Positions 41,796 through 64,000 of a stretch of DNA of 64,000 bases are shown here, piece after piece. Positions within the stretch are counted from its first letter, which is position 1. Each line of letters starts with the position of its first letter. This stretch comes from Caulobacteraceae bacterium (GTDB lineage Bacteria; Pseudomonadota; Alphaproteobacteria; Caulobacterales; Caulobacteraceae). Under the pieces are notes generated by a model that was given only the letters and a program-made list of their open reading frames with translations, searched no databases and had not been told where the DNA came from. The stretch spans positions 18,501-82,500 of the forward strand of contig JAIXZX010000006.1 in the NCBI GenBank assembly GCA_027489335.1. The letters are read 5' to 3'. The position numbers and the translations under genes were made by a program.

Positions 41796-41810
41796 CCGAA
41801 CGCTGCCGAG

Positions 41811-45331: not shown

Positions 45332-45990
45332 CCGCCCCGAAGGGCGGCGATGTTGGCGGCGTAGGCGTCCGCGCCGCCCTTGAAGACGGCGGTGCCGGCC
45401 ACCAGCGCCGTGGCGCCGGCCTCCAGGCAGAGGGGGGCCGTCTCGGACGTCACGCCGCCGTCGACCTCCAGGTGAATCTCCCGGCCGGTGGCGTCGATCA
45501 TCTCCCGCAGCCGGCGAATCTTCGCCAGTTGCGAGGTCATGAACTTCTGTCCGCCGAAACCCGGATTGACCGACATCACCAGGATCAGATCGACCTGATC
45601 CATGATGCCCTCGATGGTCGAGGGCGAGGTGGACGGATTGAAGACCACGCCCGCCTTGCAGCCTAGGCTGCGGATGAGCTGCAGGGTGCGGCTGAGGTGC
45701 GGGCCGCTTTCGGGATGGACGCTGATCAGGTCGGCGCCGGCCTTAGCGAAGGCCTCGATATAGGGGTCGGCCGGCGCGATCATCAGATGCACGTCGAAGG
45801 GGATGGTGACGTGGGGCTTCAGCGCCTTCACCACGTCGGGGCCAATGGTGATGTTGGGCACGAAATGGCCGTCCATCACGTCGATATGAACCCAGTCGGC
45901 TCCGGCGGCTTCGATGGCGCGGCATTCTTCGCCCAGGCGGGCGAAGTCAGCGGCCAGGATGGAGGGGGCGATGAGAGGCGTGCGCGTCAT
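45328..45990 (-). CDS. rpe: Ribulose-phosphate 3-epimerase
   Basis: IAPSILAADFARLGEECRAIEAAGADWVHIDVMDGHFVPNITIGPDVV; SVNPGFGGQKF. Confidence 0.98.
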   Translation of the reverse strand: MTRTPLIAPSILAADFARLGEECRAIEAAGADWVHIDVMDGHFVPNITIGPDVVKALKPHVTIPFDVHLMIAPADPYIEAFAKAGADLISVHPESGPHLSRTLQLIRSLGCKAGVVFNPSTSPSTIEGIMDQVDLILVMSVNPGFGGQKFMTSQLAKIRRLREMIDATGREIHLEVDGGVTSETAPLCLEAGATALVAGTAVFKGGADAYAANIAALRGG

Positions 45991-46056
45991 CGTCTGGACT
46001 TAACCCAAGCCGCGGGGCGGCCACAAGGACCGCCGGGGCGCCTGCCTGCCCTGCGT

Positions 46057-47340: not shown

Positions 47341-47459
47341 CGGCTGCGACGTGCCCGCTCCGCCGGCCTCAGGCAAGGAAAGATCGCAGGCGAGCGCCCC
47401 TTTCGCCGCCGCCCGCGTCGCCGCCGCGTCTGGCGCAGCGGCCCTGGCCGTCCTAAATC

Positions 47460-47663
47460 ATGCCTATGAGCGAGACCCTGCCCCCCAACGCCGCGCCGGA
47501 CAAACCCCTGAGCCCCGCGGCCCGCCGCGCCCTGGAAGAGGCGCAGGCCCGCCGCGAGGCCGAGGCGGCCCTGCAACCGCCGCCGGAAGAAGGCGGCCCC
47601 AAAGGGCCAGAGCCGACCCGTTTCGGCGACTGGGAGCGCAAGGGCATCGCCGTCGATTTCTAG
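47460..47663 (+). CDS. DUF1674 (SDHAF4-like) protein
   Basis: GGPKGPEPTRFGDWERKGIAVDF C-terminal signature. Confidence 0.9.
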   Translation: MPMSETLPPNAAPDKPLSPAARRALEEAQARREAEAALQPPPEEGGPKGPEPTRFGDWERKGIAVDF

Positions 47664-47755
47664 TCTGGTCAAGCTCGCGCCCTGAGTGCAGCGACTCGCC
47701 CCGGCCCGCCCTGGGGCGTTAGGTTCCTGTTAAGACTTGTAAACAGGAGTGTCCG

Positions 47756-48421
47756 ATGTCCTGGCCCATTCGCCATTCCCTGCCCGCGGGCCTCGCCGCC
47801 GGCCTGCTCTTGAGCCTGGTCGGCGCAGGGACGGCCGCCGCCTGCCCCGCCCATAATCCGTGCCCAGCCTCGGCCGGGGGATATTATGGCGGGGGCTATC
47901 AGCACAGCTCCGGCTACAGCGAGACCTATGGCTACGAGCAGGCCTATGTCAGCGACGGCTACGGGACCCGCGGCTACGCCCAGGAACATGGCCCCTATCG
48001 TCAGGACTATGGCCATCTCCAGCCCTCGCATCCCGGCTATGGCCACCCCGGATATGGCCCGCCTGCCTACGGCCCGCCCGCCTACGCCCCTCCTGCCTAC
48101 GCGCCGCCGGCCTATGGGCCTTGCTGCAGTCCCTGCGTGAGCGCGTGCGGTCAGGGCGCAGGTCTCGTGCTGTCCGACAGCTTCTTCGCAGGCGCTGGCG
48201 GCGTGGGACCGATCCCGTCCGGCGGCTATGGCGGCGGCGGCTACTATGTGGTCGGCGGAGGCGGCGGCTCTTCGAGCGCCTATGCGTCAGCCTCGGCGTC
48301 CGCTTCGGCCTCGGCCCGGGTCTCGATCCACGGTGGTTACGCGGTGGGCCATGGCGGCTACAGCGGCGGTCACGGGGGCGGCCATGGCGGCAAGGGCCAT
48401 GGGGGCGGCAAGGGCCACTAG
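47756..48421 (+). CDS. Secreted Gly/Tyr/Pro-rich low-complexity protein
   Basis: Signal peptide-like N-term (LAAGLLLSLVGAGTAAA); tandem PAYGPPAYAPPAYAPPAY; SASASASASARV; His/Gly/Lys tail. Confidence 0.75.
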   Translation: MSWPIRHSLPAGLAAGLLLSLVGAGTAAACPAHNPCPASAGGYYGGGYQHSSGYSETYGYEQAYVSDGYGTRGYAQEHGPYRQDYGHLQPSHPGYGHPGYGPPAYGPPAYAPPAYAPPAYGPCCSPCVSACGQGAGLVLSDSFFAGAGGVGPIPSGGYGGGGYYVVGGGGGSSSAYASASASASASARVSIHGGYAVGHGGYSGGHGGGHGGKGHGGGKGH

Positions 48422-49137
48422 GCTCCGGCCATCTCCGCTACGATCCGCTGAGCGGCGGCCTGGGGGTCATTGGCCCCGGTGATCGGGCGGCCACAGACGA
48501 TGTGCGAGGCGCCGGCCTGAAGGGCCTGGGCCGGGGTCGCCGCGCGGGCCTGATCGTTCTTCGCCGCCCAGTCGGGGCGCACGCCAGGCGTCACCACCAG
48601 GAAGTCGGGCCCGCCGATGGCCCGGGCGAGTTGCGCCTCATGGGGGCTGGCGATCACCCCGTCGCAGCCGGCCGCCACCGCATGATGTATGCGCCGCTCC
48701 ACCAGGGACCGGGCAGTCTCGGTAAAGCCCATCTCCTGCAGGTCGTCGTCCGACAGGCTGGTCAGGACGGTGACGGCCAGCACCTTCAGTCCCGACCGCC
48801 CCCGGCCGCGCACGGCGGCGGCCATCACCTGGGGTTCTCCATGCACGGTGAGAAAGTCGCACCCGGACTCGGCCAGGACCGCGGCCGAGCGTTGCACCGT
48901 CGTGCCGATGTCGTGCAGCTTCCAGTCCAGGAAGATCTGCTTGCCCTGGGCCTTGAGCTCCCGGGCCAGCGTCATGCCATCCGAGGCGAACAGCTCCAGG
49001 CCGATCTTGTAGAAGCTGGCGGCCTCGCCGATCGCCGCCACCATCTCCCGGGCCTGATCGACTGTGGGCAGGTCCAGGGGCACGATCAGGCGTGGATCGC
49101 AGGCGACATCGGCGTCGAAGCGGGCGGCGGCGGTCAT
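48418..49137 (-). CDS. pyrF: Orotidine-5'-phosphate decarboxylase
   Basis: LIVPLDLPTVDQAREMVAAIGEAASFYKIGLELF; IFLDWKLHDIGTTV; VVTPGVRP. Confidence 0.96.
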   Translation of the reverse strand: MTAAARFDADVACDPRLIVPLDLPTVDQAREMVAAIGEAASFYKIGLELFASDGMTLARELKAQGKQIFLDWKLHDIGTTVQRSAAVLAESGCDFLTVHGEPQVMAAAVRGRGRSGLKVLAVTVLTSLSDDDLQEMGFTETARSLVERRIHHAVAAGCDGVIASPHEAQLARAIGGPDFLVVTPGVRPDWAAKNDQARAATPAQALQAGASHIVCGRPITGANDPQAAAQRIVAEMAGA

Positions 49138-49220
49138 GGCGCAGGCTCCAGGCGGATTGACGCCGGTCTGACCCCATAAGGGACATCGGCGCCGCTTCAA
49201 ATTTGAGCTAGGAGCGAGGG

Positions 49221-49907
49221 ATGAGCCAGGCTGAGTTTGCGGTCAACTTCTTCGTGGCGTTGTTCGCCCTGATCGATCCGATCGGCAACGTCCCTCTGTT
49301 CGGCGCAGCGACCCAGGGCAGCAAGGGTCGCGATGCGCGGCTCGTGGCCGTCTATATCGCCCTGTTCATCCTGGGCTTCCTGACCTTTTTCTACTTCTCA
49401 GGCCTCGCCCTGCTGGCCTTCTTCGGCATCTCCCTGCCGGCCTTCCGGATCGCCGGCGGCATCATCCTGTTCCTCCTGGGCCTGGAGATGGCCCGGGATG
49501 ACTTCACCGCCACCTTTTCAGCCATGGCCGACGGCGACGAGAACCCGAAAGGTCGCGCCGGGCGCAAGTTCGAGCGGCTGATCGTGCCCTTCGCCATGCC
49601 CCTGCTGATCGGCCCCGGCGCCATTTCCTCGGCGGTCATCTACGCCAGTGAGGCCAAGACCTTCGGCCTCGCGGGCGCCGCGATCGGGGTGGGCGTGATC
49701 GGCGCCATTGCTCTGGTGACCATGCTCTGCTTCTGGGCTGCGCCGGTGATCAGCAAGATCCTCGGCCGGATCGGCATGACCATCGTCGTTCGCGTGCTGG
49801 GCCTCATCCTCTGCGCCATGGCGGTGCAGTTCGTCCTGGTGGGCATCGCCGACGCCACCAGCGGGGTGATCCTCAACGAAGCCGCCCAGCCCTATGTGAC
49901 CGAGTGA
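49221..49907 (+). CDS. MarC family membrane protein
   Basis: FFVALFALIDPIGNVPLFGAAT; FRIAGGIILFLLGLEM; PFAMPLLIGPGAISSAVI. Confidence 0.94.
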   Translation: MSQAEFAVNFFVALFALIDPIGNVPLFGAATQGSKGRDARLVAVYIALFILGFLTFFYFSGLALLAFFGISLPAFRIAGGIILFLLGLEMARDDFTATFSAMADGDENPKGRAGRKFERLIVPFAMPLLIGPGAISSAVIYASEAKTFGLAGAAIGVGVIGAIALVTMLCFWAAPVISKILGRIGMTIVVRVLGLILCAMAVQFVLVGIADATSGVILNEAAQPYVTE

Positions 49908-49914
49908 CCCGGGC

Positions 49915-50709
49915 TCAGGGCTCGCCGAAGCGCCAGCCCTGGGACGCCGTGACGCCCATGATCCAGCGCTCAGGCAGATGGCGGGCGAGGCTGGCGATAA
50001 CCTTGTTCACCACGCCGGGCACGCAGACAGGCTGGTTCTTCTCCACAGCCGCCAGCCCGGCCTCCGCCACCGCCGCGGCGTCCATCCACAGCCAGGGCGG
50101 CGTGGCGCGGTTGAGCGGCTCGCGCATGCCGTTGACGTCGTGGAATTCCGACCAGGTGAGCCCTGGGCACAGGGCGCTCACATGAACCCCGGTTCCGGCG
50201 CATTCCATGTGCAGGCTCTGGGTCATGCCGATCAGGTAGCGTTTGACCGGGCCATAGAGGCCGACTCCGCCAGGCGTCAGGCCGGCCACCGAGGCCACAT
50301 TGACGATGCGCCCGTGGCGCCGGCTCAGCATGCCCGGCAGCAGCCGGTGGGCCAGTTCGGTGGGCGCGGTCAGCATCACCTGCAGCACGGCGGCCTGATC
50401 GGCCCAGCTGTTGCCGCCAAAGCCGCCCGGCAGGCCGTAGCCCGCATTGTTGATCAGCACATCGGGCTCCCGGCCCTGGGCCGCCACTGCCTCGGCCAGG
50501 CGGGCCGGCGCGGCGGGGTCGGCGAGATCGGCGGCCAGGGTCAGCACCTCCACCCCGTGTCGGGCGCGAAGCTCTCCCGCCAGCGCCTCCAGACGATCAA
50601 GCCGCCTCGCGGTGAGCGCCAGGTCATGGCCCCGGGCGGCCAGGGTCCGGGCGAAGGCGGCGCCGATTCCGGCGGACGCCCCGGTCACCAGGGCCAGTGG
50701 GCGAGCCAT
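49915..50709 (-). CDS. SDR family oxidoreductase
   Basis: MARPLALVTGASAGIGAAFARTLAARGHDLALTARRLDRLEALA; INNAGYGLPG; YGPVKRYLIGM. Confidence 0.93.
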   Translation of the reverse strand: MARPLALVTGASAGIGAAFARTLAARGHDLALTARRLDRLEALAGELRARHGVEVLTLAADLADPAAPARLAEAVAAQGREPDVLINNAGYGLPGGFGGNSWADQAAVLQVMLTAPTELAHRLLPGMLSRRHGRIVNVASVAGLTPGGVGLYGPVKRYLIGMTQSLHMECAGTGVHVSALCPGLTWSEFHDVNGMREPLNRATPPWLWMDAAAVAEAGLAAVEKNQPVCVPGVVNKVIASLARHLPERWIMGVTASQGWRFGEP

Positions 50710-50932
50710 GGGCGCTCCTGCAAAGCTTGGCGGACCCGTCCTGATCGGCCCCCTCGCAGCGGAAGGTTGGAGAAGGTCGCGGCCCGCGGCAAGCCGATCC
50801 TCCCTGCGGCGAATCCGGCCCTGCGATTGAACCCCGTGCGGAAAGGGTGTATCGCGCCCGCCGCATCGTCGGGGCTCAGACGTCCTGTCTGGAACATCCA
50901 AACGCCGCCCCCACGGTCTCCGGAGAGTCTTG

Positions 50933-52849
50933 ATGAGTGAGCCGACCCCATCGGCTGCCGAGGCGCATTCCGACGCGTCCCATCCCAAGCCGGAAGGATT
51001 CTGGGCGCTCGCCCTGGGTTCGGTCGGTGTGGTCTTCGGCGATATCGGGACCAGTCCGCTCTACGCCATGCGCGAGGCCCTGGCCCATTCCCGCAGCGGC
51101 GGGACGGATGAGCTTGCGGTGTTCGGGGTGGTGTCCCTGGTCACCTGGGCGCTGATCCTCATCGTCACCCTGAAATACGTCATCTTCCTGCTGCAGGCCG
51201 ACAACAAGGGCGAAGGCGGGACGCTCGCCCTGATGGCCCTGGCTCAGCGGTCCCTCGGGCGGCGGTCGGTGCTGGTGTTCTTCCTCGGCATGATGGGCGC
51301 GGCCCTGTTCTACGCCGACGGCATAATCACCCCGGCCCTTTCGGTGCTCAGCGCGGTGGAAGGGCTGAAGGTGGCCCCTGGCGTCGGCGGAGCCCTGTCC
51401 TCCTTCGTTCTGCCGATCTCGGCCGGCATCCTGATCGCCCTGTTCATGGTGCAGTCCAAGGGCACCGCCAGCGTGGCGCGCTATTTCGGACCCATCACCG
51501 CCCTGTGGTTCATCACCCTGGCGGGGCTGGGCGTCCTGCACATCTTTGATGACCCGCGCATCCTGATGGGCTTGTCGCCGCACTACGGCGTGCTGTTCCT
51601 GCTGGACAACGGCTTCCTGGGCTTTGTCATCCTCGGCAGCGTCTTCCTGGCCGTCACCGGGGCCGAGGCGCTCTATGCCGACATGGGCCATTTCGGCAAA
51701 GGCCCGATCCGCGCGGCCTGGGCGGGCCTGGTCTTCCCGGCTCTGCTGCTGAACTATCTGGGTCAGGGCGCCATGGTGCTGGATAATCCTGACGCCCGGC
51801 TGAACCCCTTCTTCGCCATGATTCCCGAGGCGGCCTTCTGGCCGGTGTTGATCCTGGCCACGGCGGCCACGGTGATCGCCAGCCAGGCGGTGATCACCGG
51901 CGCCTTCTCGGTCACCCAGCAGGCGGTTCAACTGGGGCTTCTGCCGCGGATCGACATCCGTCGCACCAGCGAGACCCTGGCCGGCCAGATCTATGTGCCG
52001 CAGGTGAACATGATGCTGCTGGTGGGGGTGCTGGCCCTGCTGGCCATGTTCCAGAACTCGTCCAACCTGGCGGCCGCCTACGGCATCGCGGTCACCGGCT
52101 CAATGTTTGTCGATACCTTGCTGTTCTTCGTGATCATCGGCGCGCTCTGGAAGCGCCCCTGGTGGCAGGCGGCCCTGGCGGCCGGCTTCTTTGGCATCAT
52201 CGACTTGGTGTTCGTCTCGTCAAACCTGCTGAAGATCCCCCAGGGCGCCTGGTTCCCGCTGGTCATGGGCGCGGTCCTGATGATCGTCATGTGGACCTGG
52301 ACCCGCGGCGCCCAGATCCTCACCGACAAGACCCGGCGCGACAGCATCCAGCTCACAGAGCTGACGGAAATCCTGAAGGCCCGCGCGCCGCACCGGGCCC
52401 CAGGCACGGCCATCTTCCTGACCTCGGACCCGGATGTCGCGCCCGTGGCCCTGATGCACAATCTCAAGCACAACAAGGTGCTGCACGAGAAGAACGTCAT
52501 CCTGACCGTCCGCACCACCGAGACCCCGCGGGTCAAGGACGAGGACCGGATCAAGATCGAGCCGGTCAACGAGGACTTCAAGAAGGTCGTGGTCTCCTAC
52601 GGCTTCATGGAGAGCCCAAACCTGCCCAAGGCGCTGGGCCTCTGCCGCAAGCTCGGCCTGAAGTTCGACATCATGGCCACCAGCTTCTTCCTGGGCCGTC
52701 GCTCGGTGGTGCCCTCGGCCCAGTCGGGCATGCCGCTCTGGCAGGACCGCCTTTTCATCTATCTGATGCGCAATGCGGCCAATCCCACCGACTTCTTCAA
52801 GATTCCACCCGGCCGAGTGGTCGAACTGGGCACCCAGGTGACGGTCTAG
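50933..52849 (+). CDS. kup: Potassium uptake protein Kup
   Basis: FWALALGSVGVVFGDIGTSPLYAMREAL; LLQADNKGEGGTLALMALAQR; FFLGRRSVVPS. Confidence 0.97.
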   Translation: MSEPTPSAAEAHSDASHPKPEGFWALALGSVGVVFGDIGTSPLYAMREALAHSRSGGTDELAVFGVVSLVTWALILIVTLKYVIFLLQADNKGEGGTLALMALAQRSLGRRSVLVFFLGMMGAALFYADGIITPALSVLSAVEGLKVAPGVGGALSSFVLPISAGILIALFMVQSKGTASVARYFGPITALWFITLAGLGVLHIFDDPRILMGLSPHYGVLFLLDNGFLGFVILGSVFLAVTGAEALYADMGHFGKGPIRAAWAGLVFPALLLNYLGQGAMVLDNPDARLNPFFAMIPEAAFWPVLILATAATVIASQAVITGAFSVTQQAVQLGLLPRIDIRRTSETLAGQIYVPQVNMMLLVGVLALLAMFQNSSNLAAAYGIAVTGSMFVDTLLFFVIIGALWKRPWWQAALAAGFFGIIDLVFVSSNLLKIPQGAWFPLVMGAVLMIVMWTWTRGAQILTDKTRRDSIQLTELTEILKARAPHRAPGTAIFLTSDPDVAPVALMHNLKHNKVLHEKNVILTVRTTETPRVKDEDRIKIEPVNEDFKKVVVSYGFMESPNLPKALGLCRKLGLKFDIMATSFFLGRRSVVPSAQSGMPLWQDRLFIYLMRNAANPTDFFKIPPGRVVELGTQVTV

Positions 52850-52920
52850 AGCCGCTGGCCTGGACTCTGCTGCCGTAACTGGGCCATGGGTCGGGCGATC
52901 AAGGTGGCAGGGAGAGACCA

Positions 52921-53286
52921 ATGAACTGGCTGGGCATTGTGGGCGACGCCCTCTGGATCGTCGCCTTGTCGATCATGGCAAGCGCCTCGCACAAGGCCTG
53001 GGCGCGGGTGCCGGCCGACACCAAGATGCCCCTGCAATTCGCCCGGGACGGACGGGCCATGATGCGGGTCCCGCGCCATGTGGCCCTGCTGCTGATCCCT
53101 GGGATCGCCTTCGTGATCAGCGTGATGCTGCTGTGGCAGAACCGGCAGACCGCGCCCGGCACGCCGGACGCCCTGGTGCTGTTCGGCGTCCGCGCCACCC
53201 TGGCCGGGGTTTTCGCCCTCTATCACCTGCGGTGGCTGCAGGCCGCGGTGACCCACCTGGACCAGGAAGGCGCGCTTAAGTCTTGA
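52921..53286 (+). CDS. Hypothetical membrane protein
   Basis: 121 aa; N-terminal and central hydrophobic segments. Confidence 0.7.
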   Translation: MNWLGIVGDALWIVALSIMASASHKAWARVPADTKMPLQFARDGRAMMRVPRHVALLLIPGIAFVISVMLLWQNRQTAPGTPDALVLFGVRATLAGVFALYHLRWLQAAVTHLDQEGALKS

Positions 53287-53355
53287 ACGGACGCCCCGTT
53301 CGATCTTAAAGCCGCGCCAGTTTTCATCGCTCCGACCATCGAAAGACCTCGCCCC

Positions 53356-54588
53356 ATGGCCGCCGACAAGCCGATCAAGAAAGTCGTTCTCGCCTATTCC
53401 GGCGGCCTGGACACCTCGATCATCCTGAAGTGGCTGCAGACCGAGTATGGGGCCGAGGTGGTCACCTTCACCGCCGACCTCGGCCAGGGCGAAGAGATCG
53501 AACCGGCGCGGGCCAAGGCCCTGGCCGCGGGCGTGAAGCCCGAGAACATCTTCATCGAGGATGTGCGCGAGGAGTTCGTGCGCGACTTCGTGTTCCCGAT
53601 GTTCCGCGCCAACACGGTCTATGAGGGCCAGTACCTGCTGGGCACCTCCATCGCCCGGCCGCTGATCGCCAAGCGCCAGATCGAGATCGCCCGGGCGACC
53701 GGCGCCGACGCGGTCAGCCACGGCGCCACCGGCAAGGGAAATGACCAGGTCCGTTTTGAGCTCGGCTACTATGCGCTGGAGCCCGACATCCATGTGATCG
53801 CGCCGTGGCGGGAGTGGGACTTCAAGAGCCGCGAGGCCCTGCTGGACTTCGCCGAGAAGCACCAGATCCAGATCACCAAGGACAAGCGCGGTGAGGCGCC
53901 GTTCAGCGTCGACGCCAACCTCCTGCACTCGTCCTCCGAGGGAAAGGTGCTGGAAGACCCGGCGGTCGAGGCGCCCGAATTCGTCCATATGCGCACCATT
54001 TCGCCCGAGGATGCGCCCGACAAGCCGACGGTCATCACCATCGACTTCGAGAAGGGCGATCCCATCGCCATCGACGGCGAGGCCCTGTCGCCGGCCGCCC
54101 TGCTCACCGGCCTGAACCAGCTCGGCCACGACAACGGCATCGGCCGCCTGGATCTGGTGGAAAACCGCTTCGTCGGCATGAAGTCCCGCGGCGTCTATGA
54201 GACGCCGGGCGGGACCATCCTGCTGGCCGCCCACCGGGGCATCGAGTCCATCACCCTGGACCGGGGCGCCGCCCACCTGAAGGACGAGCTGATGCCCCGC
54301 TATGCGGAGCTCATCTATAATGGCTTCTGGTTCAGCCCCGAGCGCGAGATGCTGCAGGCGGCCATCGACCACTCCCAGGCCCATGTGGCCGGCCAGGTGC
54401 GGGTGAAGCTCTACAAGGGCAATGTCACCGTCATCGGCCGCTCCAGCCCCTACTCGCTCTATGACCAAGAGCTGGTCACCTTCGAAGAAGGCAAGGTGGC
54501 CTACGACCAGCGCGATGCAGCCGGCTTCATCAAGCTCAACGCCCTGCGCCTGCGCGGGACCGCCAAGCGCGACCGCCGGGGGCGCTGA
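53356..54588 (+). CDS. argG: Argininosuccinate synthase
   Basis: [54 protein letters not shown]. Confidence 0.98.
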
Positions 54589-54613
54589 GCCCTAGACGAT
54601 CGCGCCCCGAGTC

Positions 54614-55789
54614 TCAGGGTTTCAGAACCACCTTCACGCAGCCGTCCTGCTTGTCCCGGAAGGTCTTGTACATCTCCGGGCCGCGGCCGAGGGGCACAGT
54701 GTGGGTGATGAGGAAGGTCGGATCGATCTGGCCTTCGTCGATCCGGCGGAGCAGATCGTCGGACCAGCGGCGCACGTGGGTCTGACCGGTGCGGATGGTC
54801 AGGCCCTTGTTCATCAGGGCGCCCAGGGGGATCATGTTTGCGAGCCCGCCGTAGACGCCCGGCACCGACACCGTGCCTGCGGCCTTGCAGGCCATGATCG
54901 CCTCGCGCAGGGCCACCGGGCGCTCGGTTTCGAGTTTGAGGCCAGTCTGCACCTTGTCGATGAGGCCCAACAGAGGGGTTGGCCCGTGGGCCTCCAGGCC
55001 GACGGCGTCAATGCACTTCTCCGGACCGTGGCCATCGGTCATGTCCTTCAGGGTGGGCAGCACCTTGGCCTGGCTGCGGTCGAGAACCTCCGCCCCCAGG
55101 CCTGCGGCCATCGCCAGCCGCTCGGGCACGTCATCAATGGCGATCACCCGCTTGGCGCCCTGGATCAGCGCCGACTGGATGGTGAACAGGCCCACGGGGC
55201 CACACCCCCACACGGCGACCGTGTCCGTCGGCTGGATATCGGCGAACGCCGCCGCCTGCCAGCCGGTGGGCAGGATGTCGCTGAGGAACAGATATTTTTC
55301 ATCCTCACCGGTCGCGGGCACCTTGATCAAGGTGGTGGCGGCGAAGGGCACCCGCAGATACTCCGCCTGGCCGCCGGCATAACCGCCGGTGATGTGCGAA
55401 TAGCCAAACAACCCTGCCGTGGTGTCGCCGAAGAAGGCCTTGGCGAGGTCAGAATTGCGATTGGTGGTCTGGCAGACGGAGAAGTTGCCGGCCTGGCACT
55501 GCTCGCATTCGCCGCAGGTCATCTGGAAGGGGACCACGACCCGGTCGCCCACCTTCAGTCCGCCGGCCCGGGCCTGGGGTCCGACCTCCACCACTTCCCC
55601 CATGGCCTCATGGCCCATGACGTCGCCGACGCACATGGTGGGCACGAGGCCGTTCATCAGATGCAGGTCAGAGCCGCAGATGCAGGTCGAGGTGACGCGG
55701 ATGATGGCGTCCTTGGGGTCTTCGATGATCGGGTCCGGCACCTCTTCGCAGCGGAGGTCCTTCTTGCCTTGCCAGCAGATGGCTTTCAT
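54614..55789 (-). CDS. Zinc-dependent alcohol dehydrogenase (glutathione-dependent formaldehyde dehydrogenase-like)
   Basis: MKAICWQGKKDLRCEEVPDPIIEDPKDAIIRVTSTCICGSDLHL; GHEAMGEVVEVG; CGECEQCQAGNFSVCQTTN. Confidence 0.95.
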   Translation of the reverse strand: MKAICWQGKKDLRCEEVPDPIIEDPKDAIIRVTSTCICGSDLHLMNGLVPTMCVGDVMGHEAMGEVVEVGPQARAGGLKVGDRVVVPFQMTCGECEQCQAGNFSVCQTTNRNSDLAKAFFGDTTAGLFGYSHITGGYAGGQAEYLRVPFAATTLIKVPATGEDEKYLFLSDILPTGWQAAAFADIQPTDTVAVWGCGPVGLFTIQSALIQGAKRVIAIDDVPERLAMAAGLGAEVLDRSQAKVLPTLKDMTDGHGPEKCIDAVGLEAHGPTPLLGLIDKVQTGLKLETERPVALREAIMACKAAGTVSVPGVYGGLANMIPLGALMNKGLTIRTGQTHVRRWSDDLLRRIDEGQIDPTFLITHTVPLGRGPEMYKTFRDKQDGCVKVVLKP

Positions 55790-55801
55790 GGGGCGGTCCT
55801 C

Positions 55802-56392
55802 TTAGGCGCGGTTGCGCTTGACGTTGGTCATGCGGGTGGCGGTGATCACATCCAGGGCGGTGACGGCCAGCACGGCCCCCAGGGCCAGACGGGCGTTGGA
55901 TTGCTGCGGGTTGCTGCGGCGGTTCAGGGTGCTGAGCACGGCGATGTCGAACACGTCCCCGGCCACCCTCGCCCACAGCACCCCCGACCGGGTGGGGTCG
56001 GAGAACAGGCCGATGCCGGTGACCATCTCCCGGGCGCCAAACAGGAGCTGGGTGGTCTGAGGAGAGCCGGTCAGCCCCAGGAAGCGATGGACGCCGTTGG
56101 GAAAGAACAGGCCCAAGACCCCGAGGCCGATGGCGTTCTGGCCGAGCATGAACGAGACCTGGGGCGACAGGGCGGGCTTGGCCCGCACGCGATCTGTGGA
56201 AAGGCGCATCCGCCCCCCGCCAGGCAGGCGGAAGGTGGTGGTCGGCGCACGGTCAGCGGGCTCGCCGGCAGCGAAGCTGCGGGCGCCCTTGAACAGGGAC
56301 ACAGCCTTGTCGGCGCGTCGGCGCCAGGCGCCGTCGGCGTCGGAATTGTGGACAGAGGACACGGGGCGGCTCCTGAGGGGGACGATGCCCAC
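55802..56392 (-). CDS. Hypothetical membrane protein
   Basis: 196 aa; LGQNAIGLGVLGLFFPNGVHRFLGL; follows the ADH gene on the same strand. Confidence 0.75.
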   Translation of the reverse strand: MGIVPLRSRPVSSVHNSDADGAWRRRADKAVSLFKGARSFAAGEPADRAPTTTFRLPGGGRMRLSTDRVRAKPALSPQVSFMLGQNAIGLGVLGLFFPNGVHRFLGLTGSPQTTQLLFGAREMVTGIGLFSDPTRSGVLWARVAGDVFDIAVLSTLNRRSNPQQSNARLALGAVLAVTALDVITATRMTNVKRNRA

Positions 56393-56584
56393 TAAACGGA
56401 GGCCGAAGGCAGGTTCGTTCCCTGGACTGCCGCGGAATTTCCCGCCGCCGCCCTAGGGTCGGGCTCGGCCGGGACTGCCCCCGCCGCTGCGCCCGAGAGC
56501 CTGTTCCGGCCGATCGCGACCCGTGCCACTGTGCCCCGGGCGCCAAGCGGCGCCGTCAAGACCGACAATAAGGGGGAATTCGTC

Positions 56585-56989
56585 ATGAGTCCGCACAGCT
56601 GGGTCGCACTGGTCACAATCGCCGCGCTGCTGGTCTATTTCTGGATGGGAATCCGTGTCGCCGGCGCCCGGCGGGTTAGCGGCGTCCAGGCCCCGGCCAT
56701 GACCGGCGATCCGGTGCTGGAGCGGCATATCCGGGTGCAGGCCAACACCCTGGAATGGTTGCCCATCTTTCTGCCGGCCCTGTGGCTGTTCGCCATCTAC
56801 TGGAACGACCTGATCGCCGCTGGCCTGGGCGTGGTCTGGATCGTCGGGCGGCTGCTCTACGCCTTCGGCTATGTGGCCGACCCCGGAAAGCGGGAGCTGG
56901 GCTTCATCATCCAGTTCGTGGCCGCCGCCGCCCTGCTGCTGGGCGCCGCAGGCCGGATCATCTGGATTCTGGTGACGGTCGGCGCCTGA
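56585..56989 (+). CDS. MAPEG family protein
   Basis: GVQAPAMTGDPVLERHIRVQANTLEWLPIFLPALWLFA; IVGRLLYAFGYVADP. Confidence 0.92.
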   Translation: MSPHSWVALVTIAALLVYFWMGIRVAGARRVSGVQAPAMTGDPVLERHIRVQANTLEWLPIFLPALWLFAIYWNDLIAAGLGVVWIVGRLLYAFGYVADPGKRELGFIIQFVAAAALLLGAAGRIIWILVTVGA

Positions 56990-57009
56990 GCCCAAGGAAT
57001 CGGACCCTG

Positions 57010-57042
57010 GCCCCGATCTGGTCCCCGTGATCAGGTCGGGGC
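57010..57042. terminator. Stem-loop between convergent MAPEG and TSUP genes
   Basis: GCCCCGAtCTG...CAGgTCGGGGC. Confidence 0.6.
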
Positions 57043-57812
57043 TACAGGAAGAGCACAACCGCCTGCCAGATCGCCAGGCCGGTGACCAGAACGCCCACGA
57101 ACCAGGTCAGGGCGCGGATGGGCAGGATCTTGGTCATCCAGCCGGCCAGGGGGGCGGCGACCACCCCGCCGGCGATCAGGCCCAGCACCGAGGACATGTG
57201 ATCGCGCAGGCCCTCAGTCTCCCAATGGCCCGACAGCAGGGCCGAGAGAAAGGCCGCCGAAACCGCGGTGGCGACAAAAAACTCCGCCGCATTTGTGGTG
57301 CCAATGGCCTTGCGGGGGTCGGCGCCGGAGCCGAGCAGGGTCGAGGTCACCACCGGACCCCAGCCGCCGCCGCCCACGGCGTCGAAAAAGCCGCCCGCCA
57401 CGCCAAGGGGCAGGGGGCTTTTCCAGGAAAATGGCTTGGGCCGGACGCCCTTCCAGGCGCGATACAGGATGACCAGTCCCATCAGACCGAGCCAGGCGAC
57501 CACATAGGGCTTGATCAGGTCGCCATCGATGGAGGTCAGCAGATAGGTGCCAGCGACACCCCCCACGACGCCCCCGGAGGCCAGCAGGGCCAGCAGTCGC
57601 CAGCTGATGTTCTTATGCAGCACATGGGAGACGGCAGAGGCCGCCCCGGTGAACACCTTGGCGGCGTGGACGCTGGCCGAGGCGTTGGCCGGCGACACCC
57701 CCATGGCCAGCAGGGTCGTGGTGGAGACCACGCCATAGGCCATGCCCAGGGCGCCATCCACCAGCTGGGCGGCGAAGCCCACCGCCGCAAACAGCATGAA
57801 GTCCGATTCCAT
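57042..57812 (-). CDS. Sulfite exporter TauE/SafE (TSUP) family protein
   Basis: AAQLVDGALGMAYGVVSTTTLLAMGVSPANASASVHAAKVFTGAASAVSH; GVAGGFFDAVGGGGWGPVVTSTLL. Confidence 0.95.
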   Translation of the reverse strand: MESDFMLFAAVGFAAQLVDGALGMAYGVVSTTTLLAMGVSPANASASVHAAKVFTGAASAVSHVLHKNISWRLLALLASGGVVGGVAGTYLLTSIDGDLIKPYVVAWLGLMGLVILYRAWKGVRPKPFSWKSPLPLGVAGGFFDAVGGGGWGPVVTSTLLGSGADPRKAIGTTNAAEFFVATAVSAAFLSALLSGHWETEGLRDHMSSVLGLIAGGVVAAPLAGWMTKILPIRALTWFVGVLVTGLAIWQAVVLFL

Positions 57813-57837
57813 CGCCCGCCCCTGACTTCTCAGACCC

Positions 57838-57860
57838 TGAGATACTACCCTAGTGTCTCA
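57838..57860. promoter_or_regulatory. 23-bp palindromic candidate operator upstream of the TSUP gene
   Basis: TGAGATACTA-CCC-TAGTGTCTCA (10-bp arms, one mismatch), ~26 bp before the start codon. Confidence 0.6.
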
Positions 57861-58130
57861 ATAGGAATTAAGTGAAATCTACAGCGCGCAGGTCTGCACG
57901 TCCCACGCCATCTGCCACGCCGCCCCCCCTAAGGCCGTGAAGAGGCTCCCGTTTTGGGCGAAGACGGTCTCCAACGCCCAGCTGTCGCGCACACGAAAAA
58001 GTCATCTGCCCGTCGGGGCCCAAGCCTTGGCCCGGGCGGCGGGAGTGGTCGGGCAACCAAAATTGCGCCACGGTGTTGGCCTAGTCTGCCGCAGAGCGTT
58101 CGGGGGACGTTCTCAAGGAACGAGACGAAC

Positions 58131-58706
58131 ATGAAAAGACTATCAGGTCCCGCTGTCGCCCTCGCCCTTCTGGCCGGGCTGAGCGCGTGCGCCACAGCGA
58201 CGCCCTATCAGCCGAACCTGCCGGGCGCGGCGGTCTCCGGCGGCTATTCCGAGATGCGGATCGAGCCGGACCGCTGGCGGGTCAGCTTCGCGGGCAACAG
58301 CCTGACGGGCCGCGAGACGGTTGAGGGCTATCTGCTCTACCGGGCGGCCGAACTGACCGTGCAGCAGGGCTATGACGGGTTTTCCATCGTCACCCGGGCG
58401 ACTGATCGGGATGCCCGCACCTATGTGCAGCCCGACCCCTTCTACAATCCCTGGTATGGGCCGCGCTATTCCTACTGGCGGCCCCATTGGCGCTACTATT
58501 CGGCCCATAACTGGCGCACCTGGGACCCCTACTGGGGCGACCCCTTCTGGGCCGACCGGGTGGATGTGCGCACCGTTGAGCGGTTCGAGGCTACGGCTGA
58601 GGTCGTGATGTATCGCGGCGCCAAGCCGGCGGGCGATCCCAACGCCTTCGATGCGCGCGCTGTGCTTGAAAACCTTGGCCCGAGGATCATGCGCCCCGCG
58701 CCATAA
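58131..58706 (+). CDS. CC0125/CC1285-like lipoprotein
   Basis: Lipobox LLAGLSAC; YSEMRIEPDRWRVSFAGNSLTGRETVEGYLLYRAAELTVQQGYDGFSIV. Confidence 0.9.
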   Translation: MKRLSGPAVALALLAGLSACATATPYQPNLPGAAVSGGYSEMRIEPDRWRVSFAGNSLTGRETVEGYLLYRAAELTVQQGYDGFSIVTRATDRDARTYVQPDPFYNPWYGPRYSYWRPHWRYYSAHNWRTWDPYWGDPFWADRVDVRTVERFEATAEVVMYRGAKPAGDPNAFDARAVLENLGPRIMRPAP

Positions 58707-58742
58707 CGGGCTCTACAATCAGCTTGATTTCGGCATGACAAA

Positions 58743-58768
58743 GGGGGCGGACCGCAAGGTCCGCCCCC
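58743..58768. terminator. Perfect GC-rich stem-loop between convergent genes
   Basis: GGGGGCGGACC-GCAA-GGTCCGCCCCC. Confidence 0.75.
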
Positions 58769-58795
58769 TCATCATATCTGGTCAGCAGGCGATTC

Positions 58796-58993
58796 TCAGG
58801 TGATGTGCTTAGGCGCGATCGGATCGCTGGCGGGGAAGGTTTCCTCCACCGCCTCATCCACCAGGGCCTCCTGACGGGTTTCAGCCTTGCGGCCATCGCG
58901 GTCCAGCTGGTCGTGCTTCTGGCCGTCCGGAAGGGGGGCGGCCGGGCGCGAGCTCGGGGCGTTGGCGTCGTCGTCTTTGCGCTGTTCGGTCAT
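58796..58993 (-). CDS. Small hydrophilic hypothetical protein
   Basis: 65 aa ending ALVDEAVEETFPASDPIAPKHIT, a recurring alphaproteobacterial tail motif. Confidence 0.75.
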   Translation of the reverse strand: MTEQRKDDDANAPSSRPAAPLPDGQKHDQLDRDGRKAETRQEALVDEAVEETFPASDPIAPKHIT

Positions 58994-59165
58994 GGGGACC
59001 TCCGTCTCTCGACCCCGCCCAAACGGCGGGGCGTCGCGCGAGGGAAAATGCTGGAGGCGTGGCTTTGGTTGCAGCCGTAGCGCTCAGCCTCGCCGAGCCC
59101 ACAAACAAAAAAAGCGGCCCGCGAGGGGCCGCCTTCTTGGATCGCCACATGTCCCCTTAGGGAAA

Positions 59166-59210
59166 TGGAGCGGGCGAAGAGATTCGAACTCTCGACCCCA
59201 ACCTTGGCAA
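59166..59210 (-). tRNA. 3' half of tRNA-Gly(GCC): island attachment-site remnant, not a functional tRNA
   Basis: Minus strand TTGCCAAGGTTGGGGTCGAGAGTTCGAATCTCTTCGCCCGCTCCA: anticodon loop TTGCCAA through T-arm and acceptor plus CCA; no 5' half adjacent. Confidence 0.88.
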
Positions 59211-59461
59211 CGGCGGAATTTCTTTTTCAGACAGTAACTTAGGTTTCACCCAGCTACTGCCGATTGCAGAGAAATGTACGCTTCTACGATCGCCGCAATT
59301 CGGCATTGGGAGCTCGAATATGTCGACTTTCCAGCACCTGTATGAATTCACCAGCGTCTCAGAGACTGCAACCCACCGGCAACCAACCCATCCCCAGGCG
59401 GGCCAAACAACAGGGTTGTCCTGATCGACTCGGCTGACGGTGGGCGGCACTGAGCACATTT

Positions 59462-59476
59462 GTTCTATTTTTGTTC
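59462..59476. promoter_or_regulatory. Candidate alphaproteobacterial LexA (SOS) box
   Basis: GTTC-TATTTTT-GTTC = GTTCN7GTTC. Confidence 0.55.
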
Positions 59477-59509
59477 TCGCATTCGCGCGTGATTTCGATA
59501 GAATAGTTT

Positions 59510-59564
59510 CATGGTGCGGGGTCTGCGCTGGATCGCCTGAGGGCATCCGAGCCACCGCACCATG
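59510..59564. other. Long-stem inverted repeat
   Basis: CATGGTGCGG ... CCGCACCATG perfect 10-bp arms enclosing 35 nt with an inner GGAT/ATCC, GCC/GGC stem. Confidence 0.7.
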
Positions 59565-59638
59565 ATGCCCAGCAACTAGAGCTGCCTCATCTCCTCCCTG
59601 AGAAGGCGCGCCTCACTCACATCCTCAAGGAAGCTAGC

Positions 59639-60235
59639 ATGGCCTTTGGTCTGATCGATCCCGCACGTCTGGAAGGTGAAGCGTTACAGCGATGGTATCG
59701 CCGCTCACCGGCGGATCTTGAATATGCGCGCGAAGCTGGAGAGGCCCAGCGATATGTGCAGATCACAGCTCCGATGCGGCCGGCGTCGTTGGCTCTTGCT
59801 GCAGAAGCAAACTCCCGCACGGGATCCGATCGGTGGCCGGGCGCCTTTGATTATGGCCAACGCCAACTTACCGCGCCGGCTCCCCAAAGAGGCGCGTTTG
59901 GCCACGAAGAGGCTCAGCGCCAGCGAGTCCAGATTGCAGCAAATGACCATGTTTGCCGCTCCTGCCACTGGGGTGGCGTGCCGCCTATTCCCCCGCGGGG
60001 CCTAACGTCTTTTCGCGACGTCCCCAAGCTGCCGCCGTCAAAGCCACCGGAGCGAGATCGCAAGCAGTGCGAGATTCAGGATGCCCGTGATAGGGAGACT
60101 TGCGGTCGTCAGCCCAACGCCGCAGCAAAAGCCGTTTGTAATGAGAGCGCCACCCGCCGCTATTCGCATTGCTTACTGACAGGCGAAGTCGACTACCCCA
60201 ACCTGTTCACCCACCCGAGCGCACCTCGAAGATGA
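59639..60235 (+). CDS. Hypothetical protein, possible orphan toxin-like cargo
   Basis: 198 aa; N-term LIDPARLEGEALQRWYRRSPADLEYAREAGEAQRY; C-term Cys-rich RKQCEIQDARDRETCGRQPNAAAKAVCNESATRRYSHCLL. Confidence 0.7.
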   Translation: MAFGLIDPARLEGEALQRWYRRSPADLEYAREAGEAQRYVQITAPMRPASLALAAEANSRTGSDRWPGAFDYGQRQLTAPAPQRGAFGHEEAQRQRVQIAANDHVCRSCHWGGVPPIPPRGLTSFRDVPKLPPSKPPERDRKQCEIQDARDRETCGRQPNAAAKAVCNESATRRYSHCLLTGEVDYPNLFTHPSAPRR

Positions 60236-60552
60236 CCATCATAGCTGAGCAGACCCTCGATCTCTCCTTCACCAGCGACAAGCTGGCGGCTCGTCTGTTC
60301 GCGCCGGAACAGAAGGATGAGGAGACGTGGGTCTGCCGCTTTGAGATCGGTGCGCCGATCAATGAGTCCCTTGATGCTCAGGGGGTCTCGAGCCTTCAGG
60401 CTCTTGCGCTTGCGCTCAAGAGCCTGTCAGCGGCGCTCTACAGCTCTGAACTCTATAGGAACGGCCAGCTAGGCGCGTTTGGCGAGTTCAACGGCTACCT
60501 GGGAATTCCTGCGCCGGGCATTTTCAAAGACATCGCCCCGTTCACCTTCTGA
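60232..60552 (+). CDS. Small immunity-like hypothetical protein
   Basis: ATGA overlap with the upstream gene; MTIIAEQTLDL...WVCRFEIGAPINESLDAQGVSSLQALALALKSLSAALYSSELYRNGQL. Confidence 0.7.
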   Translation: MTIIAEQTLDLSFTSDKLAARLFAPEQKDEETWVCRFEIGAPINESLDAQGVSSLQALALALKSLSAALYSSELYRNGQLGAFGEFNGYLGIPAPGIFKDIAPFTF

Positions 60553-60769
60553 GGCTCGCCACCTCGGACCGAGCCCTGATTTCCGATAAAGACCCCGTAG
60601 CGGAGGCTCCCCCATCCCCGCTGTCGCACGAGGATCACGGGTAAGCACTGTCTGGAAGAGCGGACTTTTTCCCGAGGGTTCTCGCCCCAAGAAATACCCC
60701 CATGCCGAGCGCGGGCCGGGGGTCTTTGGGGGTTGGGTGTATATCGGGGCGCTAAGTTCGCCTGCCCGC

Positions 60770-61006
60770 CTAGCCCTGCGCGGAGGCGTCGCCGGGGGCG
60801 GCGAAGAACTCAGCGGGATGGACCTCGAGCACCTGCGCCAGCCGACCGAGAACGGCCACCGAAGGATTTTCCTGGCCCCTCTCGATCCCGCCGACATAGC
60901 GTGTGTCGATCTCAGCCCCATGAGCAAGCGCCTCCTGCGTCAGCCGCTTGGCCTTACGCAGTCGCTTCACATTTGGGCCGATGACCTCCTCCCAGCGCAT
61001 GGCCAC
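60770..61006 (-). CDS. HTH XRE family regulator
   Basis: IGPNVKRLRKAKRLTQEALAHGAEIDTRYVGGIERGQENPSVAVLGRLAQVLEV. Confidence 0.9.
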   Translation of the reverse strand: MAMRWEEVIGPNVKRLRKAKRLTQEALAHGAEIDTRYVGGIERGQENPSVAVLGRLAQVLEVHPAEFFAAPGDASAQG

Positions 61007-61118: not shown

Positions 61119-61640
61119 ATGTTTCTCGCCGTTCACTCTTCCGCCGATGTCGATCGCTCCATGGGCCTCATCCGGGCCTCGGCCACGCGTGTACAGAGCT
61201 GGATCAAGACCCACGATGGCGATCCGCTAGACCTGCTAAGGCAGATGAAGTTCGCTCCAATCGGTCGTCACCCCATCGAGGCCCGGCCGCTGAATCTGGT
61301 CGAGCAGATCAACCAGACCTGGACCTATGCGGTGGCGTTGGTGGCGACGCGGCAACTCCTGCGGCTTCACCCGGAGGCAGGTGGATTTCGGGTTGCGCCA
61401 GGCGCACACATGTCCATCCCGCTCGACATCATGAGCGTGGAACCTGGTCTCGTGGGCGCTGAGACCTTCGCCACTGTACATCCGCGCAATAACGGCAAGC
61501 TGGCCGCCGATCTAGCCAAACTGGCGACCAGGCCTGAAACTTACCGGTATGTGTTCTTCAGTTCACCTAGCTATACTCGCCTGGAACGGGTGCTAAAGCT
61601 TGAGCGGGACGGGGTCCAGGTCTGGTCTGTCGCCCTTTGA
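61119..61640 (+). CDS. Uncharacterised island protein
   Basis: 173 aa ORF; IPLDIMSVEPGLVGAETFATVHPRNNGKLAADLAKLATRPETYRYVFFSSPS. Confidence 0.75.
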   Translation: MFLAVHSSADVDRSMGLIRASATRVQSWIKTHDGDPLDLLRQMKFAPIGRHPIEARPLNLVEQINQTWTYAVALVATRQLLRLHPEAGGFRVAPGAHMSIPLDIMSVEPGLVGAETFATVHPRNNGKLAADLAKLATRPETYRYVFFSSPSYTRLERVLKLERDGVQVWSVAL

Positions 61641-61718: not shown

Positions 61719-62357
61719 GTGCCTACTCCTAAACAGCCCCCCTACGACACCAGCGGAAGCCCACGCCCTTCCTTTGATCCGGCCGATGTTGCCTGGACCG
61801 GGATCGACGGAAGGCTCGATCCTGCAAATCTAATCGATGAGCATGGGTATGAGCCAGAGGGACCCCTTCAAATCCTGGTTCGCGCTATCGTGAGAGCCTA
61901 TCCAAATCCGGCGCGGCGCGACCAAGAGCGAGAGAACGTAGCTCTAGCTGCGCTGGTAGGGACTAATCATAAGGGCAGGCCTGAGGCCGACGATCACGAC
62001 CACCTTTTGGAGATCGCAAGGCGCTATCATGTGGAGGCCCTTGATGCTCGCTTTAGACAGGGCGGCGGCCCCGTCGAACCTGCTCTGGCGCCCATCATCA
62101 GAACTGTCGTGCCTGATGACTACCTGCCAGGGCAACGTGGCGGTCTCAAGAACTACAGACGGGTGCTTGAGAGGAAATTCTTAGGGCAGCGCGACGTGCT
62201 ACTAACCCGCGTTACATCCGAGGAAGACCCCAACCGTCTAGATATGAAGTCAGCCTTGCGGGGCGTGCTCAGGGCGTTGAAGCGCTTGGGCATCAAGGTT
62301 GACGAAACAGTGCTCCCGGACAGACGCGCCAAGCGGGGACGAAAATCGTCGATTTAA
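61719..62357 (+). CDS. Uncharacterised island protein
   Basis: 212 aa ORF with balanced composition; GTG start. Confidence 0.65.
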   Translation: MPTPKQPPYDTSGSPRPSFDPADVAWTGIDGRLDPANLIDEHGYEPEGPLQILVRAIVRAYPNPARRDQERENVALAALVGTNHKGRPEADDHDHLLEIARRYHVEALDARFRQGGGPVEPALAPIIRTVVPDDYLPGQRGGLKNYRRVLERKFLGQRDVLLTRVTSEEDPNRLDMKSALRGVLRALKRLGIKVDETVLPDRRAKRGRKSSI

Positions 62358-62391
62358 GCTCGAAGCCAGCCGGGCTAACTGTGGCTAATGG

Positions 62392-62415
62392 GATGTCTCC
62401 TAAATTGGAGACATC
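62392..62415. promoter_or_regulatory. Perfect dyad containing the SD of the downstream gene
   Basis: GATGTCTCC-TAAATT-GGAGACATC (9-bp arms). Confidence 0.85.
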
Positions 62416-62417
62416 AG

Positions 62418-62606
62418 ATGAATACGAGCTTGGAGCCGCTGCTATCCATTAAGGCCGCTGCCAATGCAGCAGGCTTGAAATACTGGCTTTTGCTGCGAGC
62501 CGTGAACAACGGCGATATTCCGACCTACCAGTTCGGCAACAAGCGGCGGCGGGTGCGACTGTCCGACATCGAGGCCGCGATCGTTAAGAGCGGGTGGTGC
62601 GAGTGA
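62418..62606 (+). CDS. AlpA/excisionase-like helix-turn-helix protein
   Basis: LLSIKAAANAAGLKYWLLLRAVNNGDIPTYQFGNKRRRVRLSDIEAAIVKSGW. Confidence 0.82.
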   Translation: MNTSLEPLLSIKAAANAAGLKYWLLLRAVNNGDIPTYQFGNKRRRVRLSDIEAAIVKSGWCE

Positions 62607-62693: not shown

Positions 62694-62754
62694 TGAGGTG
62701 GCGCCGGTTCTCCGTACAGTTTGGCGGCTTGGCTAAGGTTGGTTCGGGTTCAGA

Positions 62755-63651
62755 TTACGCCGCCAGTTTGTGCTCAGGGTTGGCCCTATCCGGGGCGAGC
62801 CCCGGATAGGGCGGCGCCTGGATTTGTCCATAGGCCTCGTCGGGGGTGGCCCCGGCAAGGGCCGAGTGGGGCCGGTTGGTGTTGTAGTAGCCGATCCACT
62901 TGGTGAGCCCGGTCCGCAGCTCCGATCCGGTCTCGAAGGCGTGGATATAGACGCACTCATATTTGAGGCTTCGCCAGAGCCGCTCGATGAAGACATTGTC
63001 CATCCAGCGGCCGCGGCCGTCCATGGAGACCCGCACGCCGGCGTCCTTCAGCACGTCGACGAAGCGGGGGCTGGTAAACTGGCTGCCCTGGTCGGTGTTG
63101 AAGATCTCCGGCGTCCCGTAGCGGGCCAGGGCCTCCTCCAGGGCCTGGATGCAAAACTCTGCGTCCATGCTGTTGGAGAGCCGCCAAGACAAGACCTTCC
63201 TGGTCGCCCAGTCCATCACCGCCACCAGGTACAGGAAGCCCCGCCGCATCGGGATGTAGGTGATGTCGGCGCACCAGACCTGGTTCGGCCGGTCGATGGT
63301 CAGGCCGCGCAGCAGGTACTTGTAGGCCCGGTGCTCGGGGTGCGGGATCGTTGTGCGCGGCTTCTGATAAATCGGCGCCAGGCCCATCTTGGCCATCAGC
63401 CGACGCACCCGCATCCGGCCCACCTCATAACCCTGGCGGCGCAGATGCCGGGCCATCTGGCGCGAGCCGTACCAGGGCGTCTCCAGGAACGCCTCGTCGA
63501 TCAGCCGCATCAGCGCCAGGTTCAGCGGGGTCTCACCCGCCGGCTGGTAGTAGAAGGCCGACCGGCTGATCGACACCAGGGCGCACTGGCGCTGGATCGA
63601 CAGCCGGGGATGCTCGGGCTCGATCATCTGCCGCCTCCGGTCCAGGCTCAA
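62755..63651 (-). CDS. IS3-family transposase OrfB (DDE integrase core)
   Basis: PNQVWCADITYIPMRRGFLYLVAVMDWATRKVLSWRLSNSMDAEF; FNTDQGSQFTSPRF; YNTNRPHSALAGATPDEAY. Confidence 0.97.
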   Translation of the reverse strand: MSLDRRRQMIEPEHPRLSIQRQCALVSISRSAFYYQPAGETPLNLALMRLIDEAFLETPWYGSRQMARHLRRQGYEVGRMRVRRLMAKMGLAPIYQKPRTTIPHPEHRAYKYLLRGLTIDRPNQVWCADITYIPMRRGFLYLVAVMDWATRKVLSWRLSNSMDAEFCIQALEEALARYGTPEIFNTDQGSQFTSPRFVDVLKDAGVRVSMDGRGRWMDNVFIERLWRSLKYECVYIHAFETGSELRTGLTKWIGYYNTNRPHSALAGATPDEAYGQIQAPPYPGLAPDRANPEHKLAA

Positions 63652-63932
63652 CGACCGAAGGCCTTGGCTAAAAAATCCCGCTCCACCACCAGCTGCCCGA
63701 TCTTGGCGTGCAGCTTATCGATCTCGCCCTCCCGGGCGCCCTCGCTCGCCTCGGCCTTGCCGGAGAACACCCCGGAAAGACCCTCGATCGCCTGCTTCCG
63801 CCACGCCGCGATCATCGTCTGATGGACGCCGTGTTTCGTCGCCAACTGCGACAGGGTCAGCTCACCCTTCAACGCCTCCAGCGCCACCTTGGCCTTAAAA
63901 TCAGCCGTGTACCGCTTCCGCTTCCCAGTCAT
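63648..63932 (-). CDS. IS3-family transposase OrfA
   Basis: MTGKRKRYTADFKAKVALEALKGELTLSQLATKHGVHQTMIAAWRKQAIEGL. Confidence 0.96.
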   Translation of the reverse strand: MTGKRKRYTADFKAKVALEALKGELTLSQLATKHGVHQTMIAAWRKQAIEGLSGVFSGKAEASEGAREGEIDKLHAKIGQLVVERDFLAKAFGR

Positions 63933-64000
63933 AAAGTCCGTCCTTCATCGAGGTCGAACCTACCTTAGCCAACTGTCCGAATTTCCGGCGCCACCTCAGA

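What the first reader, a model, noticed from the sequence alone, without database searches (positions are those of the whole stretch)
59166..59210. tRNA-Gly(GCC) 3' fragment marks the boundary of an integrated island
The minus-strand 45 nt match a tRNA-Gly(GCC) from the anticodon loop to CCA, with no 5' half. Left is core genome; right has island-like content (small unknown ORFs, HTHs, an IS element). Tyrosine-recombinase elements typically leave a tRNA 3' fragment at the distal end and an intact tRNA at the other. The geometry predicts an intact minus-strand tRNA-Gly(GCC) and probably an integrase beyond 64,000.
Basis: partly seen in the sequence, partly recalled or inferred. Interest (0 to 1): 0.7.

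Follow-up and report, generated by a model that had tools for sequence, protein, structure and literature searches.

The report
Integrase-less defence island in tRNA-Gly
The 45-base tRNA-Gly scrap is the far edge of a roughly 13 kb foreign DNA island that inserted into the cell's tRNA-Gly gene and carries probable phage-defence genes; it is an ordinary kind of island, unusual here mainly because its own integrase gene appears to be missing and a transposon has damaged it.

Summary
The window ends at its contig's end, just past an IS3-family element. The intact tRNA is on another contig (C9:8688-8762, minus) in the predicted orientation; C9's start overlaps the window's end by 119 bases. Two relatives (G001, G017) have the empty site: one uninterrupted locus matches both host flanks, which meet on the 45 bases. 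A closer relative (G359) keeps the same left junction with only 1.3 kb of island. The reconstructed island is about 13.4 kb, GC 0.60-0.61 against 0.69 in the core. It carries small unknown ORFs, HTH proteins, an IS, and an operon of PLD-SNF2 helicase, type-ISP-like methyltransferase, PDC-M61A and an IS-truncated Hsp70-like PDC-M61B. The predicted integrase is absent from both known ends, though the same site in G026 carries one. So the boundary and geometry are right; the integrase is not found. Best read as a decayed, CIME-like tRNA-Gly island, a new member of a known kind. Main uncertainty: the contig join at the IS, because a third contig (a guaA island) ends in the same IS.

The parts
59166..59210 (-). 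3' part of tRNA-Gly(GCC), from first base of the anticodon loop to CCA: attL-type remnant at the distal end of the island
   Evidence: 45/45 identity to the intact tRNA on C9; host flanks meet on these bases in the empty-site relatives
58125..58706 (+). core gene left of the island (probable lipoprotein); syntenic next to tRNA-Gly and the DUF6065 gene in relatives
59100..59165 (.). host flank just downstream of the tRNA 3' end (terminator-like hairpin), same as in G001/G017/G359
59211..60640 (.). first island segment; shared with G359 at the same tRNA-Gly site (left junction, then 59441-60640 at 96% DNA identity)
59639..60235 (+). 198-aa ORF of unknown family, present in the G359 island
60169..60552 (+). 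DUF6968 ORF (listed 127-aa frame; true start probably downstream)
   Evidence: Pfam PF22302 E=1.4e-15; 98% identical protein in G359
60770..61006 (-). Cro/C1-type HTH regulator
   Evidence: PF01381 E=6.7e-13
61119..61640 (+). 173-aa ORF of unknown family
   Evidence: no Pfam, PADLOC, PHROG or NCBIfam hit
61719..62357 (+). 212-aa ORF of unknown family, nearly absent from 392 genomes of the family
62388..62606 (+). 72-aa HTH_17 / excisionase-like ORF (weak)
   Evidence: PF12728 E=0.001, phrog_66 E=0.0009
62694..63998 (-). IS3-family element, 1305 bp, ends TGAGGTGGCGCCGG...CCGGCGCCACCTCA; two transposase ORFs (63648-63932, 62755-63651)
63882..64000 (.). 119 bases identical to the start of contig C9; includes 2 bases beyond the IS end. 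The island continues on C9:120-8687 (truncated PDC-M61B, PDC-M61A, methyltransferase, PLD-SNF2 helicase) to the intact tRNA-Gly C9:8688-8762 (-)

Best explanation
Window 59166-59210 is the displaced 3' half of tRNA-Gly(GCC). It was left when a mobile element carrying a copy of that 3' half recombined at the anticodon loop of the host's only tRNA-Gly(GCC) gene. Recombination kept a complete tRNA at one end (C9:8688-8762) and left the fragment at the other. Shown: the matching repeats, the orientation, the empty site in relatives, the GC drop and the island-only gene content. Inferred: that a tyrosine integrase did it. The element has since decayed. It has no integrase at either known end, and an IS3-family element cut off its last defence gene (the Hsp70-like PDC-M61B) without a matching duplication on the other flank. 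This is most simply an IS-adjacent deletion that removed the rest of that gene and perhaps the integrase. What remains is a CIME-like island carrying a probable restriction-type defence operon.
For: The only two 45-mers in the genome are the fragment and the intact tRNA. Both are on the minus strand in the predicted geometry, given the 119-base overlap of C14 end and C9 start. In G001 and G017 one contiguous locus matches window 57399/57433-59210 and C9 8685-10020/10117, overlapping on the tRNA 3' part. In G359 one contig carries C9 8685-20000 (92%) and window 40001-59276 (89%) on either side of the site. Identity starts at the first base of the 7-nt anticodon loop, the known 'A' crossover subsite (PMC4383910). 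G026 has a 3.9 kb element bounded by the same 45 bases with a PF00589 + Arm-DNA-bind_3 integrase. GC is 0.60-0.61 against 0.69 in the core. No PF00589 lies on C14 or C9:1-8687, and no G026-type integrase is in the genome.
Against: The contig join at the IS is not unique, because C6 ends in the same IS end; an unassembled stretch holding an integrase cannot be excluded. G359's right end differs: a host terminator copy lies between its intact tRNA and the 1.3 kb element, which simple integrase action does not explain. No integrase was seen in this element.
Confidence: 0.85

Rival explanations
1. The island still has its integrase, in a stretch missing from the draft assembly between the IS on C14 and the IS end on C9.
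For: C14 ends at the IS, and two contigs (C9, C6) carry the IS right end but only one carries the left end, so some IS-flanking DNA may be missing. The Hsp70-like gene is cut at the IS and its remainder is found nowhere in the genome.
Against: C14 and C9 overlap by 119 bases including 2 bases past the IS end that C6 lacks. Neither island end has an integrase next to the att site; in G026 it is beside the fragment.
Confidence: 0.2
2. The fragment is a decayed copy from a tandem duplication of tRNA-Gly, and foreign DNA later accumulated next to it by other means.
For: G028 has two intact tandem tRNA-Gly copies. In G359 the repeat includes about 65 bases of host terminator as well as the 45 bases, as a tandem duplication would give.
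Against: In this genome the repeat is exactly the tRNA 3' part and nothing beyond it. The break falls on the anticodon-loop boundary, is unchanged in G359, and matches the site used by the integrase-bearing element in G026.
Confidence: 0.08
3. C14 joins C6 (the guaA island with integrase and AlpA) through the IS, after recombination between two IS copies, so the two halves of the tRNA-Gly island are now apart.
For: C6 ends in the same IS end.
Against: G359, G001 and G017 keep both host flanks together. C6's integrase sits after guaA, and PF00589 hits of similar score (83 bits) occur in G001 and G017. The last 2 bases of C14 match C9, not C6.
Confidence: 0.06

Closest known systems
tRNA-targeting genomic islands as catalogued by Islander (PMC4383910)
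   Same: Intact tRNA at one end, 3' fragment at the other, same orientation, 2-200 kb, crossover at the anticodon loop (subsite A).
   Different: Islander requires an integrase inside; this island has none in the sequence at hand, so it would be filtered out.
CIME (cis-mobilizable element; PMC5704250)
   Same: Keeps both att-type ends but has no integration or transfer genes.
   Different: No related ICE/IME was identified as its parent, and no transfer was tested.
Integrase-bearing element at the same tRNA-Gly in relative G026 (L093 3835-7773)
   Same: Same target tRNA and the same 45-base core.
   Different: Different cargo; it has a 450-aa P4-like tyrosine integrase next to the fragment.
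Type-2 BREX-related systems (HKD + SNF2 helicase, N6-MTase, DUF499, DUF3780; PMC12839542), DISARM DrmD and PADLOC 'C3a139 HKD+Snf2'
   Same: Helicase with N-terminal PLD/HKD nuclease beside an N6 methyltransferase.
   Different: Methyltransferase has a Type_ISP_C domain; no DUF499 or DUF3780 hit in the four right-arm genes; partner genes are PDC-M61A/B.

Membership tests
Genomic island integrated in a tRNA gene (Islander type) | Intact tRNA and a cognate 3' fragment flanking the island in the same orientation | tested here: met
   order relies on the C14-C9 adjacency, supported by G359 on one contig
Genomic island integrated in a tRNA gene (Islander type) | Uninterrupted site in relatives | tested here: met
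   G001 and G017
Genomic island integrated in a tRNA gene (Islander type) | Tyrosine integrase (PF00589) gene inside the island | tested here: not met
   No PF00589 hit on C14 or in C9:1-8687; no remnant at tblastn E<0.1; a gap at the IS cannot be excluded
CIME (cis-mobilizable element) | attL and attR retained | tested here: met
   45/45 identical ends
CIME (cis-mobilizable element) | No integration or conjugation genes | tested here: met
   No integrase; no relaxase or transfer family among the ORFs scanned
CIME (cis-mobilizable element) | Derived from an ICE or IME, mobilised in cis | not testable with these tools
   needs a parental element or a mating assay
Type-2 BREX-related system | HKD-SNF2 helicase plus N6-MTase | tested here: met
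   PF13091, PF00176, PF00271; PF02384
Type-2 BREX-related system | DUF499 ATPase and DUF3780 in the locus | tested here: not met
   not among Pfam hits of the four right-arm genes

The most novel reading that the evidence does not exclude
The four-gene operon next to the tRNA (PLD-SNF2 helicase, type-ISP-like methyltransferase, PDC-M61A, Hsp70-like PDC-M61B) is one composite defence system not described as such, and the small 1.3 kb unit shared with G359 is an integrase-free element moved into tRNA-Gly by an integrase supplied in trans.
Probability: 0.12. Interest if true: 0.5.

Novelty: new member of a known kind. Interest (0 to 1): 0.27.

Why it matters
It maps both ends of a defence-carrying island to the base and adds tRNA-Gly(GCC) as a used integration site in this genus, occupied in three of the genomes examined here: the window's own, G026 and G359. 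It also illustrates how an island can lose its integrase and remain fixed in the chromosome, a case that island finders requiring an integrase would miss. The mechanism itself is textbook.

Tried and rejected
C6 integrase as the island's own: rejected, it sits after guaA in a separate island and PF00589 hits of similar score are in G001 and G017. tRNA-Gly as a busy hotspot in the genus: rejected. Many relatives have 2-20 kb between the two flanking genes, but only G026 had a second, truncated tRNA copy among the first 24 examined; G359 was found later. Integrase remnants in the island by tblastn with two integrases: nothing below E=0.19. Remainder of PDC-M61B elsewhere in the genome: none. PDC-M61A relatives: only weak or partial hits in 4 other genomes of the family, neighbourhoods not pursued. 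Repeats of tRNA ends around helicase homologues next to other tRNAs: no 14-base match in 6 loci. Literature on PDC-M61: none held.

Full report
What is there. Window 59166-59210 on the minus strand reads TTGCCAAGGTTGGGGTCGAGAGTTCGAATCTCTTCGCCCGCTCCA. A whole-genome search with up to 3 mismatches finds only one other place, C9:8688-8733 (-), which lies inside an intact tRNA-Gly(GCC) at C9:8688-8762 (-). The match is 45/45 and begins at the first base of the 7-nt anticodon loop. No full tRNA-Gly is in the window. The next best ungapped match in the window is 27/45.

Where the window ends. The window is contig C14:18501-82500, and the contig stops at the window's end. The last 1.3 kb is an IS3-family element, 62694-63998, with 14-bp identical ends, followed by 2 bases. 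The end of C14 and the start of C9 share 119 identical bases, including those 2 bases. The same IS end also occurs at the end of C6, so the assembly alone does not prove the join.

The empty site. In relatives G001 and G017 one uninterrupted locus matches window 57399/57433-59210 and C9 8685-10020/10117. The two matches overlap on the tRNA 3' part. Host sequence 3' of the tRNA in G001 continues as in the window (left of 59166), and host sequence 5' of the tRNA continues as on C9 (94% over 100 bases, against 24% for the window). Therefore 59166 and C9:8688 are the two ends of one insertion. In a closer relative, G359, a single contig carries C9 8685-20000 (92%) and window 40001-59276 (89%) on the two sides of the site. 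This independently supports C14-C9 adjacency.

Contents. With the direct join the island is about 13.4 kb. GC is 0.596 (left arm) and 0.61 (right arm), against 0.69 in the core on both sides. Left arm: a 198-aa unknown ORF, DUF6968, a Cro/C1 HTH, two unknown ORFs, a small HTH_17/excisionase-like ORF and the IS. Right arm (C9, minus strand, from the tRNA inward): a 1050-aa helicase with PLD and SNF2 domains, a 1171-aa N6 methyltransferase with a Type_ISP_C domain, PDC-M61A, and the first 96 codons of an Hsp70-like PDC-M61B that ends on the TGA at the IS end. 'Hsp70-like' rests on the IDFGTS ATPase motif read by eye and on the weak PDC-M61B match. The listed 556-aa PDC-M61A frame overlaps the methyltransferase and probably starts later. 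The helicase is widespread: 570 candidate stretches in the genome collection encode a relative, and most of the best-matching loci inspected have the methyltransferase next to it. I read the pair as a restriction-type defence module by homology; nothing was tested.

Integrase. Four PF00589 genes exist in the genome: two XerC/D-like (inferred from size and score), one after guaA on C6 and one beside tRNA-Arg on C4. None is on C14 or C9:1-8687. In 24 relatives only G026 has an integrase at this site. There, a 3.9 kb element is bounded by the same 45 bases, with the integrase beside the fragment. No gene of that type is in this genome beyond weak similarity to the two Xer-like genes. So the predicted integrase next to the intact tRNA is not there; a lost or unassembled one remains possible.

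Decay. The left flank of the IS (...GGAGGAA) and its right flank on C9 (GAGCTC...) do not show a clean target duplication. The rest of the Hsp70-like gene is not found anywhere in the genome. An IS-adjacent deletion is the simplest reading (inference).

G359. This relative shares the left junction and 59441-60640 at 96% DNA identity. It has only about 1.3 kb between the fragment and the intact tRNA, no room for an integrase there, and a repeat of about 110 bases (1 mismatch) that includes the host terminator. The shared junction shows the boundary is not an assembly artefact and may predate the split of the two species. The extra terminator copy is unexplained. A deletion involving an empty sister copy, or an earlier tandem tRNA duplication (as in G028), are possibilities.

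Verdict. The boundary and the prediction of an intact tRNA are confirmed. The integrase prediction is not. The island is a decayed tRNA-Gly island. By Islander's definition it fails the integrase filter (PMC4383910). By structure it fits the CIME description (PMC5704250), except that its parent element is unknown.

Noticed in passing
L197 (G359), reversed coordinates 600-2132: A 1.3 kb integrase-less insertion at the same tRNA-Gly with a repeat of about 110 bases that includes the host terminator; its origin is unclear.
   Followed up: partly
C9:115-405 (L005): Hsp70-like PDC-M61B gene cut to 96 codons by the IS; the remainder is not in the assembly.
   Followed up: yes
C6:360157-361911 (L017 10158-11912): Separate island after guaA: P4-like integrase, AlpA regulator, then the same IS end at the contig end. 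PF00589 hits of similar score occur in G001 and G017.
   Followed up: partly
C4:177685-178125 (L016): Integrase gene next to a tRNA-Arg(ACG), probably another tRNA island.
   Followed up: no
L113, L119, L131, L136, L143: Homologues of the PLD-SNF2 helicase start 0.15-1.1 kb downstream of a tRNA-Thr or tRNA-Ser in other genomes (7 of 67 loci have some tRNA within 2 kb upstream), hinting that this module often travels in tRNA islands; not tested against a background rate.
   Followed up: partly
L087 (G028) 4778-4852 and 4931-5005: Two intact tandem tRNA-Gly(GCC) genes.
   Followed up: no
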